From Bacillota bacterium (lineage in GTDB: Bacteria; Bacillota; SHA-98; UBA4971), in assembly GCA_030024085.1 (NCBI GenBank), contig JASEJE010000004.1, positions 1 to 64,000 on the forward strand: a DNA stretch of 64,000 nt. Direction: 5' to 3'. The notes under the pieces were generated by a model that did not search any database, was not told the origin of the DNA, and saw nothing but the letters and a program-made list of their open reading frames with translations. Of the stretch, positions 36,231 to 40,521 are shown piece after piece. A program made the position numbers and the translations under genes. The first letter of the stretch is position 1; every line of letters begins with the position of its first letter.

Positions 36231-36482
36231 TTGGGCGAAGGCAGGTTTGACCCGGAGCTTGTCAGGGCTTTCAAATTCTACGGTACCATCAGCTTCAACA
36301 TCGCAGGATCGATGGCTCTGGGGTTTGCTGCAGGACACGCGCTCGATGGGAAGCTGGGGACACGCCCGTGGCTCGCAGTCACAGGGTTTCTCCTCGGCGC
36401 TCTCGCGGGGTTCTGGGGCGTCTATAAGCTTGTCATGTCCGAGTTCCGTGACAGACAACCGAAGCCGAAACCGCCGAAATGA
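36231..36482 (+). CDS. AtpZ/AtpI-like protein
   Basis: SFNIAGSMALGFAAGHALDGKLGTRPWLAVTGFLLGALAGFWGVYKLV; upstream of atpB. Confidence 0.75.
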   Translation: MGEGRFDPELVRAFKFYGTISFNIAGSMALGFAAGHALDGKLGTRPWLAVTGFLLGALAGFWGVYKLVMSEFRDRQPKPKPPK

Positions 36483-36510: not shown

Positions 36511-36816
36511 ATGTTAGCAGGAGCACTGGCCGGCGCCCTCCTCGGGGCGCTTGATCTTTTTACGATGGTCTGCACGGCAACGAAAGCTGCGCAGCTGAGT
36601 GTCGCCCGCGCGTCCGCGCTCGTGCGATGGACGGCGCTCGGACGCATAATCCTGATCTTCCTGGCGATGGCGCTGGGCGCGGCGGTTTTCGGCCAGCCGG
36701 CCTTCCTGTGCATGGCCGCGACCTACGTTGCCGTTCGGCTTGCGGGGCTGTTCGTGGTGGCCGCGAGGAAGCCCGAGGTTCGAGCTGAGCAAGGGCGCGG
36801 GCCTGCCTGCCGGTAG
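36511..36816 (+). CDS. ATP synthase subunit I-like protein
   Basis: Small multi-TM protein upstream of atpB. Confidence 0.6.
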   Translation: MLAGALAGALLGALDLFTMVCTATKAAQLSVARASALVRWTALGRIILIFLAMALGAAVFGQPAFLCMAATYVAVRLAGLFVVAARKPEVRAEQGRGPACR

Positions 36817-37092
36817 AGCCGGGTGGCGGGACCTCCCTGTGGCCCCCGCGGCCGCCTGTGCGGACGCAATCAGGGGTTCCCGGCACGCAAGTCCTGTGCG
36901 GGGCGCTTCGGCCGGGTGCTGATCCGGCGTGCAAGGGCGTGGAGCGCCGGTCGGGGGTGGGCGAGGGCCGGACACGAGAGGCGCAGGCGTGAGTCGCTGC
37001 GCCGATGACGATGCACGTACGCGTCGGCCAGCCCGGCGTCGGCCAACTCGGTGGGTCGGCGGGGGAAGACCGGAGGGACTGGGGGAGAGAAT

Positions 37093-37761
37093 ATGGGACA
37101 CGCTTCCAGTGAGATCGGCGCGCATCTGGTGGTGCGCATCGGCATGTTCACGTGCCACCTGGACAGCATCATCATGACGTGGATCGTGATGGCCCTTCTG
37201 GTGGGAGTGGCCGTTATCGCCACGAGGAAGATGAAGGACGTCCCGGGCGGGTTTCAGAACATGGTGGAGTACGGCGTCGAGGCGCTCTGGGGCCTGGTGG
37301 CGGACAACGTGCCGCCGCGGGCGCGGGGGTGCTTCCCAGTCATTGCCACGCTGTTCCTCTTCATCCTCGCATCGAACCTTATAGGCGTCGTGCCGGGGAT
37401 GAAGTCGCCGACCGCAGATATCAACGTTACGCTGGCGCTCGCCGCGGTGGTGCTCGGGCTGACAGTCTATGCGGGGGCATCGGTCAAAGGGGTCTGGGGG
37501 TATATCGTCGGCTTCGTCAAGCCGAACCCACTCTTCCTGCCCCTCAACCTGATCGAGCTGTGCACGCGTGCGATAACGCTGGCGCTGCGACTGTTCGGCA
37601 ACATCTTCGCCGGTGACGTGCTGGTCATCATCCTGGGTAAACTCGTGGCCTATGCGGTTCCCACAGTGGGTCAGGCATTCCACGTGTTCGTCGGGGTGCT
37701 TCAGGCGTATCTCTTTGTCATGCTGTCGATCGCTTACGTGACAGTAGCGTCGGAGGAGTAA
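37093..37761 (+). CDS. atpB: F0F1 ATP synthase subunit a
   Basis: LIELCTRAITLALRLFGNIFAGDVLVIIL. Confidence 0.95.
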   Translation: MGHASSEIGAHLVVRIGMFTCHLDSIIMTWIVMALLVGVAVIATRKMKDVPGGFQNMVEYGVEALWGLVADNVPPRARGCFPVIATLFLFILASNLIGVVPGMKSPTADINVTLALAAVVLGLTVYAGASVKGVWGYIVGFVKPNPLFLPLNLIELCTRAITLALRLFGNIFAGDVLVIILGKLVAYAVPTVGQAFHVFVGVLQAYLFVMLSIAYVTVASEE

Positions 37762-37796: not shown

Positions 37797-38051
37797 ATGA
37801 CGGAAGTCATGCTTCTCAAGCTCATCTCGGTTGGAGCCATATGCATCATCGTGTGTGTCGCGGCACTCGTAGCCGGACTGGGTGACGCGCATGTGGCGGC
37901 GAGGGCCGTGGACGGCATCGCCCGCCAGCCGGAGGCCAAGGCGTCGATCTTCTCGACGATGCTGATAGGGATCGGCCTGGTCGAAGCGACGCCGATCATA
38001 GCGCTGGTGGTAGCGCTCATCCTTCTCTATGCCAACCCGTTCCTCGGCTGA
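37797..38051 (+). CDS. atpE: F0F1 ATP synthase subunit c, with carboxylates in both helices (D30, E63)
   Basis: AGLGDAHVAARAVDGIARQPEAK...GLVEATPIIALVVALILLYANPFLG. Confidence 0.96.
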   Translation: MTEVMLLKLISVGAICIIVCVAALVAGLGDAHVAARAVDGIARQPEAKASIFSTMLIGIGLVEATPIIALVVALILLYANPFLG

Positions 38052-38185: not shown

Positions 38186-38689
38186 TTGATCCAGATCGAC
38201 ATGACGTTTTTTGCCAGTATCCTCAACTTCCTGTTGCTGACGGCGCTCCTGACGTTCTTCCTTTACAGGCCGGTCCGCAAGTTCATGATGGACCGACAGG
38301 ATCGCATAAAGCGGTCGCTTGAGGAGGCCGCCCGGGACCGCGCCGAAAGCGCAAAGATGAAGCAGGAGTATGAGGCTCGCCTCGCACAGGCAAGCTGCGA
38401 GGCGCAGGATATAATCGAGAAGGCCGTGGTGCAGGGAGAGCGTTCGCAGGCAGAGATACTGGATGCTGCGCGCAAGGAGGCAAAGACCATCCTCGAGCAA
38501 GCGAGGTCGGAGGCCGCCCGGGAGCGGCAGGCGGCCTTCGAAGCGCTGCGGGATGACATCGTGAACCTGGTCATATCGACTGCAACCGTGGTTACCGGGA
38601 AGAACATCGGCCCTGCCGACGACGAGGCCGCCGTGAAGAGCCTCTTGGAGGAAGGCTGGCTTGGCAGTGCGGGGGAGCGGGAACCATGA
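38186..38689 (+). CDS. atpF: F0F1 ATP synthase subunit b
   Basis: [38 protein letters not shown] plus long helix. Confidence 0.93.
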
Positions 38690-40504
38690 AACCTATCAGG
38701 AAGAGGACGCAACCGGCGGCAAAAAGGCCGCTGCGGGTTATTGCCAGGACTGCGAGGCCTCTGCCTCCGGAGCTTGAGCAGCGTATCCGCGCTTACATGT
38801 CGGAAGTCGTCGGTAGGCCCATAGCCATGTTCTTCGAACAGGACCCCGGCCTGCTGGGAGGCATCGCGCTTCAGGTAGGCAACACCGTGCTGGACGCCAG
38901 CCTCAGCCGAAGGCTGGAGGAGATCCGGGCGAAGCTCGCCGTACACCTTCGGGCCGCGGCGCCAATCCCGCCGCCGGACATCCCTGCCGGCGTGGGGGTT
39001 GCGCGCGACGCTCTCAGGACCGCCGGCGATATGATCAGGAACTACAAGCCGGTCCCTGTGGTGGAGGAGGTGGGCACCGTCGTCTCGGTCGGCGACGGCG
39101 TCGCCAGGGTGAGCGGGCTTCCGTCGGCCATGTCCGGCGAGCTCCTGGCCTTTGACGGGGGCGGCGAGGGGATGGTGCTCGACCTCGATGCGGATGCCGT
39201 GGGGTGTATCATCTTCACGGGCGGGGACACAATCGCAGAGGGAACGGTCGTCCGGTGCACGGGGAGGGTGGCGGACGTACCTGTCGGCGAGGAACTCCTC
39301 GGCCGCGTGGTGACCCCGCTGGGGGACCCCGTGGACGGGAAGGGCCCCATCCTTGCCCGCGCCAGGCGGCACATCGAGGGGCCTGCACCCGGTGTTGCAG
39401 AGCGCGAGCCCGTCAGCACGCCCCTGCAAACGGGCATCCTGGCTGTCGATGCCATGGTGCCCATCGGCCGGGGGCAGCGCGAGCTCATCATCGGCGATCG
39501 ACAGACAGGAAAGACGTCCATTGCGGTGGATGCCATAATCAGCCAAAAGGGCTCAGGAGTACTCTGTGTGTACGTGGCCATTGGCCAGAAGGCCTCTAGC
39601 ATAGCACAGACCGTTGGGGTGCTGGAGGAGCAGGGCGCGCTTCCTTACACCGTTGTCGTTGTTGGGTCGGCGAGCGACCCGGCGCCGCTCCAGTATATCG
39701 CCCCGTATGCCGGGTGCGCCATGGCTGAGCACTTCATGTATGCCGGCAGAGATGTGCTCATCGTGTACGACGACCTCTCCAAGCACGCGGCCGCTCACAG
39801 AGAGGTGGCGCTGCTGCTGCGCAGGCCGCCGGGCAGGGAGGCATACCCTGGAGACATCTTCTACATCCACGGCCGTCTTCTCGAGAGGGCTGCAAAACTT
39901 TCGAGGGAGCGCGGGGGAGGCTCGATGACCGCGCTGCCCATCGTTGAGACGCTGGCCGGAGATATGTCGGCTTACATCCCGACGAATACCATCTCCATCA
40001 CCGACGGTCAGATCTACCTGGAGAGCGATCTGTTCTTCTCGGGGATCCGTCCGGCGGTAAACGTGGGGCTCTCAGTCTCACGCGTCGGCGGCGACGCGCA
40101 GGTGCCCGCCATGCGGGAGCTGGCGTCCCACCTGCGCCTTGACCTTGCGCAGTACAGAGAGCTTTCAGCGTTCGCCCAGTTCGGAGCGGACCTCGACAGA
40201 GCCACTCAGGCGCAGCTTCGACGGGGCGAGCGGATAGTGGAGGTCCTCAAGCAGACAAACCGCGAGGTCCTGGCCGTCGAGGAGCAGGTCGTCATGCTCT
40301 TCACTCTGTCGGGTGAGTGGCTCGACGACGTCCCCGTGGACCAGACAAGGTGGTTCGTGAAGGAGTTCCTGGTGCACGTCAGGGAGGGGTATCCCTCCGT
40401 GATGCGACGGATACGCGAGACCGGACGGCTTGACGAGGTCAGAGAGGATCTCGCTCGGGCGCTGAAGGCTTTCAAGAAGGATTTCGCCGGGGTGATGGGT
40501 CGCC

Positions 40505-40521
<17 letters not shown>
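38686..40521 (+). CDS. atpA: F0F1 ATP synthase alpha subunit with N-terminal delta C-terminal-domain-like fusion
   Basis: 611 aa; residues ~27-88 [59 protein letters not shown] resemble AtpH C-terminus; then alpha with [15 protein letters not shown]. Confidence 0.93.

What the first reader, a model, noticed from the sequence alone, without database searches (positions are those of the whole stretch)
37797..38051. c-subunit with a second carboxylate (Asp30) in TM1 opposite the TM2 Glu63
Aligned by eye on the conserved RQPEAK loop, Asp30 (codon GAC 37884-37886) falls at the position of Ilyobacter Gln32 and E. coli Ile28, facing the TM2 ion-binding Glu63. A two-carboxylate c-ring motif is known in Fusobacterium nucleatum. 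Here the TM1 residue is Asp and the TM1 glycine pattern is also reduced (CVAALVAGLGDAH), in the same operon as the delta-alpha fusion.
Basis: partly seen in the sequence, partly recalled or inferred. Interest (0 to 1): 0.72.

Follow-up and report, generated by a model that had tools for sequence, protein, structure and literature searches.

The report
Ordinary proton-type rotor with second acid
The ring protein of this bacterium's ATP synthase really does carry a second acidic residue facing the ion-binding one, but the same arrangement is already known from the tuberculosis bacterium and occurs in many other anaerobes, so it is most likely a normal proton-driven rotor rather than a new sodium-driven type.

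Summary
The 84-aa c subunit (37797-38051) has Asp30 in mid TM1, 33 residues before Glu63. The spacing is the same in Ilyobacter Q32/E65, F. nucleatum E32/E65, M. tuberculosis D28/E61 and E. coli I28/D61. D30 is invariant in all ten class genomes that carry this c subunit; one looser relative has Asn. The comparison with Fusobacterium is the wrong one. The site lacks the Na+ ligands (S66 is A64, Y70 is I68). On a tree built without the diagnostic columns it groups with other Asp/Asn/Ile c subunits lacking the TM2 aromatic, M. tuberculosis included (on a very long branch). F. nucleatum-like Glu subunits fall elsewhere, with Q-type Na+ subunits. Best reading: a proton-coupled rotor whose Asp30 stays protonated as a hydrogen-bond partner. 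The reduced glycine motif (AxVxGxGxA) is real and clade-wide; it may mean a larger ring (untested). Asp30 and the delta-alpha fusion are not linked. The same genome also encodes an Acetobacterium-woodii-like Na+ hybrid rotor and an Enterococcus-hirae-like Na+ V-ATPase, so this is its only rotor without a sodium signature. Verdict: new member of a known kind, modest interest. All ion assignments are inferred from sequence.

The parts
37797..38051 (+). atpE, F-type c subunit, 84 aa
   Evidence: PF00137 55.2 bits; 65-96% identity to clade relatives
37884..37886 (+). codon GAC, Asp30: TM1 carboxylate at the Ilyobacter Q32 / F. nucleatum E32 / M. tuberculosis D28 position
37983..37985 (+). codon GAA, Glu63: conserved TM2 ion-binding carboxylate; followed by A64, T65, P66 and I68 (no Na+ ligand Ser or Tyr)
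37851..37889 (+). TM1 segment V19-A31 with reduced glycine motif (A23-V25-G27-G29-A31)
   Evidence: 2 of 5 Gly; 5 of 5 in 64 of 130 distinct segments
36231..36482 (+). AtpZ/gene 1-like subunit
   Evidence: PF09527 56 bits
36511..36816 (+). small hydrophobic ORF, no Pfam match; position suggests an AtpI-like subunit
37051..37761 (+). atpB, a subunit (with the ALRLFGN Arg)
   Evidence: PF00119 170 bits
38150..38689 (+). atpF, b subunit (start codon uncertain)
   Evidence: PF00430 94 bits
38686..40521 (+). fusion of the delta (OSCP) C-terminal domain with alpha, 611 aa
   Evidence: PF00213 positions 103-172 at residues 16-84; PF02874/00006/00306 after that; TIGR00962 732 bits
40505..41425 (+). 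atpG, gamma
   Evidence: PF00231 281 bits
41427..43007 (+). atpD, beta
   Evidence: PF00006 244 bits
43011..43466 (+). atpC, epsilon
   Evidence: PF02823 92 bits, PF00401 46 bits

Best explanation
This is the c subunit of an ordinary H+-coupled F-type ATP synthase, of the Asp/Asn-type branch that includes the mycobacterial c subunit by its site residues. Glu63 carries the transported proton and engages the a-subunit Arg. Asp30 stays protonated through the cycle and acts, like Asn at the same place in a relative, as a hydrogen-bond donor or water ligand next to Glu63; it is not transported and does not make the ring sodium-driven. Shown: position, spacing, conservation, absence of the TM2 Na+ ligands, branch membership, Asp/Asn exchange. 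Inferred: protonation state, proton coupling, direction of operation.
For: Spacing to RQP and E63 matches solved c rings with no gap. A64 and I68 replace the Na+ ligands Ser66 and Tyr70 of the F. nucleatum and Ilyobacter sites. The M. tuberculosis c (8j0s) has the same set: GxGD, GLVEA, Ile at +5; Schulz et al. treat the M. tuberculosis and S. pneumoniae two-carboxylate rings as H+-driven with a constitutively protonated extra carboxylate (PMC3692424). Survey of 130 distinct segments: Asp goes with Ile at +5 in 21 of 21 (Ala at +1 in 19), Glu goes with Ser/Thr at +1 and Tyr at +5 in 16 of 16. On a tree without those columns, the Asp, Asn and Ile types lacking the aromatic form one branch (SH-aLRT 94: 22 D, 3 N, 2 I) apart from the E types. 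The relative L045 (UBA3943, 67% identity) has Asn30 with the same EATPII. The genome's other two rotary ATPases carry Na+-type c subunits.
Against: No ion measurement exists. The Asp/no-Na+-ligand association is one evolutionary split on the tree, so it is not statistically replicated. The M. tuberculosis row is on a very long branch (1.89), so its placement is weak. T65 (a water ligand in Na+ rings) is retained. The organism has an Rnf/Nqr-type pump, which pumps Na+ in some relatives, and neither a NuoH match nor a haem-copper oxidase match was found.
Confidence: 0.78

Rival explanations
1. A Na+-coupled two-carboxylate ring of the F. nucleatum kind, with Asp30 and Glu63 both binding Na+.
For: Two carboxylates at the same two positions; T65 kept; best single-hairpin sequence and fold hits in the PDB are Na+ rings 3zk1 and 1yce; Rnf/Nqr-type pump in the genome.
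Against: Ser66 and Tyr70 ligands are absent; Asp is one carbon shorter than Glu/Gln; every E-type c in the survey keeps Ser/Thr and Tyr whereas no D-type keeps the aromatic; separate branch on the tree; the genome has other, canonical Na+ c subunits.
Confidence: 0.07
2. Asp30 is a regulatory titratable group, a pH sensor that slows the rotor at high pH, as once proposed for E. coli A24D mutants.
For: E. coli two-carboxylate mutants gain a pH dependence (reported in PMC3692424); Asp is invariant in the ten class genomes.
Against: Asn replaces Asp in a relative of the same clade (L045); Schulz et al. compute constitutive protonation of the extra carboxylate even in the open site and reinterpret the mutant data.
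Confidence: 0.08
3. Asp30 is tolerated but not functionally important: an inherited state of this branch, where Asp, Asn and Ile are all found.
For: The branch holds D 22, N 3, I 2 rows.
Against: An unpaired charge-capable residue in the middle of a membrane helix kept in the ten class genomes and in 7 families outside the clade, with synonymous codon change, suggests a real role; in mycobacteria Asp32 takes part in a water-mediated network (PMC8873251).
Confidence: 0.07

Closest known systems
Mycobacterial F-ATP synthase c subunit (M. tuberculosis 8j0s, M. phlei 4v1f)
   Same: TM1 Asp at the same position, 13 residues before RQP and 33 before the TM2 Glu; GLVEA around the Glu; Ala at +1 and Ile at +5; no Na+ ligand set
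   Different: Only 35-36% identity in structure alignment; mycobacteria have GIGDG with most glycines kept and AAYFIN instead of ATPIIA; here delta is fused to alpha (mycobacteria fuse b with delta, own knowledge)
Asp-type c subunits (GIGDG...EALPII) of other Bacillota families (L018, L019, L025, L146-L151, L153)
   Same: Same Asp, Ala/Ser at +1, Pro and Ile-Ile after; same tree branch
   Different: They keep 3-5 of the 5 glycines of the motif and have a separate delta subunit
F. nucleatum c11 two-carboxylate Na+ ring (3zk1)
   Same: Second carboxylate at the same TM1 position; 49-56% identity between this c and fusobacterial c subunits
   Different: Glu not Asp; Ser66 and Tyr70 Na+ ligands missing here
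B. pseudomallei N-type c17 ring
   Same: Two-carboxylate, shown H+-specific, altered glycine motif (AxGxAxAxG) (PMC5376962)
   Different: Glu30 in TM1, Thr62 and Tyr66 near the site; N-type operon, whereas this operon has F-type order

Membership tests
F-type ATP synthase c subunit | Two-helix hairpin, RQP loop, TM2 carboxylate, PF00137, in an atp operon | tested here: met
   (TIGR01260 68.7 bits, cut-off 43.95)
Two-carboxylate c ring | Second carboxylate in TM1 at the Ilyobacter Q32 position | tested here: met
   gap-free alignment to 3zk1 and 1yce over this stretch; same spacing in 8j0s
Two-carboxylate c ring | Both carboxylates in one binding site, the extra one protonated in the closed state | not testable with these tools
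   needs a ring structure; inferred from position only
F. nucleatum-type Na+ two-carboxylate ring | Glu/Gln in TM1 plus Ser/Thr at +1 and Tyr at +5 of the TM2 Glu | tested here: not met
   Asp30, Ala64, Ile68
Mycobacterial-type (Asp) H+ c ring | TM1 Asp, EA at the site, no +5 aromatic | tested here: met
Mycobacterial-type (Asp) H+ c ring | Same branch of the c tree | tested here: inconclusive
   M. tuberculosis falls in the same branch (SH-aLRT 94) but on a branch of length 1.89
Mycobacterial-type (Asp) H+ c ring | Proton coupling | not testable with these tools
   needs a biochemical assay
N-type ATPase | Gene order atpDCQRBEFA and N-type subunit models | tested here: not met
   order is Z-(I)-a-c-b-delta/alpha-gamma-beta-epsilon; the N-type models TIGR03322, TIGR03306 and TIGR03324 score far below their cut-offs

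The most novel reading that the evidence does not exclude
The genus runs two F-type ATP synthases of different ion in one fermentative cell: the window's Asp30 proton rotor, with an unusually glycine-poor and perhaps enlarged ring and alpha-fused delta domains, beside an A. woodii-like Na+ hybrid rotor. Together with an Rnf/Nqr-type pump and a Na+-type V-ATPase they could convert H+ and Na+ gradients into each other through ATP.
Probability: 0.35. Interest if true: 0.5.

Novelty: new member of a known kind. Interest (0 to 1): 0.28.

Why it matters
It corrects a tempting reading (second carboxylate means a Fusobacterium-like sodium enzyme). In the c subunits collected here the TM1 residue sorts cleanly with the TM2 ligands: Asp/Asn with no Ser/Tyr, Glu/Gln mostly with Ser/Thr and Tyr/Phe. 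Asp in TM1 is therefore a better flag of the proton type than of the sodium type. The clade also offers a natural Asp-to-Asn swap for testing whether the TM1 carboxylate must be titratable, and a genome in which proton-type and sodium-type rotors coexist.

Tried and rejected
Rejected: Fusobacterium-type Na+ site (TM2 ligands missing). Rejected: functional coupling of Asp30 to the delta-alpha fusion (the two occur apart). Rejected: N-type ATPase (gene order and family scores). Testing the Asp/ligand association on the tree by independent pairs gave one usable pair, so no statistic is claimed. The structure search of the AF2 hairpin gave only weak E-values (best 0.011) with c subunits at the top; a lone hairpin lacks the ring curvature, so it confirms the fold but not the geometry of the site. 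Two Pfam calls failed on wrong coordinates. The mycobacterial c-ring paper PMC4640650 was not held.

Full report
Observation. The ORF at 37797-38051 (+) encodes an 84-aa F-type c subunit inside a complete atp operon: AtpZ, a small hydrophobic ORF, a, c, b, a fusion of the OSCP/delta C-terminal domain with alpha, gamma, beta and epsilon. Asp30 (GAC 37884-37886) and Glu63 (GAA 37983-37985) are 33 residues apart. The spacing is the same in Ilyobacter and F. nucleatum, whose alignments have a gap only nearer the N-terminus, in M. tuberculosis and, from own knowledge, in E. coli. AlphaFold2 places residues 2-42 and 45-79 in helices with mean pLDDT 91, so Asp30 is mid-membrane and not in the loop.

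Conservation. Asp30 is present in all six genomes of the genus and in the four other class genomes that have this c subunit, with GAC and GAT codons. It is also present in G047 (65% identity) and in L046 (76%), while L045 (67%) has Asn. Seven genomes of a sister genus have no match to this c subunit at all.

The site is not a sodium site. In F. nucleatum Na+ is held by Glu32, Glu65, Ser66, the Val63 carbonyl and a water, with Tyr70 and Ser66 bonding Glu65 (PMC3692424). Here Ser66 is Ala64 and Tyr70 is Ile68. The TM1 residue in M. tuberculosis (PDB 8j0s) is Asp, with the same GLVEA and Ile at +5. Schulz et al. name M. tuberculosis and S. pneumoniae as H+-driven two-carboxylate enzymes and argue that the extra carboxylate is permanently protonated and equivalent to Gln or Asn. 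The B. pseudomallei N-type ring is an experimentally H+-specific two-carboxylate ring (PMC5376962). Two carboxylates thus do not imply sodium.

Survey. A pattern for GxG[D/E][G/A]-x10-ARQP in 398 genomes of the phylum hit 29 genomes; a few of the hits are plainly chance and outside a c subunit. On a tree made without the diagnostic columns, all Asp, Asn and two of the three Ile rows form one branch (SH-aLRT 94), and all but one of the Glu rows fall with Q-type Na+ subunits on the other side. Caveats: the tree has 66 columns and many open forks, M. tuberculosis is on a long branch, and the association is essentially one split, so it is descriptive and not a replicated test. The sample is skewed towards Bacillota and towards relatives of this c subunit.

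Glycine motif. Positions 23/25/27/29/31 read AVGGA in the genus, AIGGA or AAGGA elsewhere in the class, and AAAGS to AGSGA in the looser relatives. Alanine substitutions in this motif are linked to larger or wider rings (c13 of B. pseudofirmus, PMC2914638; c17 of B. pseudomallei with AxGxAxAxG, PMC5376962). A larger ring is therefore a fair prediction but not tested; Val or Ile at position 25 is rare in the sample (7 of 130).

Delta-alpha fusion. The fusion is found throughout the clade (own genus, G013-G016, L045, L046) and also in G036, whose c subunit is Q-type; other Asp-type operons have a separate delta of about 180 aa. So the fusion and Asp30 are independent traits.

Genome context. The same genome has a second F-ATPase whose double-hairpin c is closest to the A. 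woodii c1 chain 4bem_J (191 bits) and whose single c carries the Q/E/T/Y set (operon genes). It also has a V-ATPase with a K subunit closest to the E. hirae sodium V-ATPase (2bl2, 125 bits). An Rnf/Nqr-type subunit is present; no NuoH and no haem-copper oxidase match was found. The window's F-ATPase is therefore the only one of three rotary ATPases in this genome without sodium signatures, which fits a proton-coupled role.

Mechanism. Most likely Glu63 picks up and releases protons at the a-subunit Arg as in any F-ATPase, while Asp30 keeps its proton and hydrogen-bonds Glu63 or a site water. Position, conservation and ligand loss are shown; protonation and proton coupling are inferred. The assay that would decide is Na+ and pH protection in NCD-4 labelling of the ring.

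Noticed in passing
window 38686-40521: Delta (OSCP) C-terminal domain fused in front of alpha; no separate delta gene between b and alpha. Found in the whole clade and in G036 (L023). If present on every alpha it would put three delta C-domains on each F1.
   Followed up: partly
L038:10265-12166 (-), L037:8803-14863 (-), own genome contig C64: Second F-ATPase, A. woodii-like hybrid rotor: AtpI, a and double-hairpin c (Glu in hairpin 1, Gln in hairpin 2) in one cluster; single-hairpin c, b, full-length delta, alpha, gamma, beta, epsilon in another. The two c genes are about 15.5 kb apart in G000, G003 and G005 but only 0.5-0.7 kb apart in G001 and G002, as if a block was inserted or removed within the operon.
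   Followed up: partly
L039:4537-13273 (-), own genome contig C3: Third rotary ATPase, V/A-type, with an NtpK-like K subunit of the E. hirae sodium type.
   Followed up: partly
G001:C34:215762-215959: One hairpin of the double c of G001 is read through an in-frame TAG; sequencing error, decay or recoding not examined.
   Followed up: no
G001:C61:62-313: G001 has a second copy of the Asp30 c on a small contig whose matched DNA is identical to that of G004, which suggests contamination between bins.
   Followed up: no
G006-G012: Seven genomes of the sister genus in the same family have no match to this c subunit, yet those tested keep the Rnf/Nqr-type gene.
   Followed up: no
window 36511-36816: Small hydrophobic ORF between AtpZ and the a subunit with no Pfam match; possibly a diverged AtpI.
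   Followed up: no
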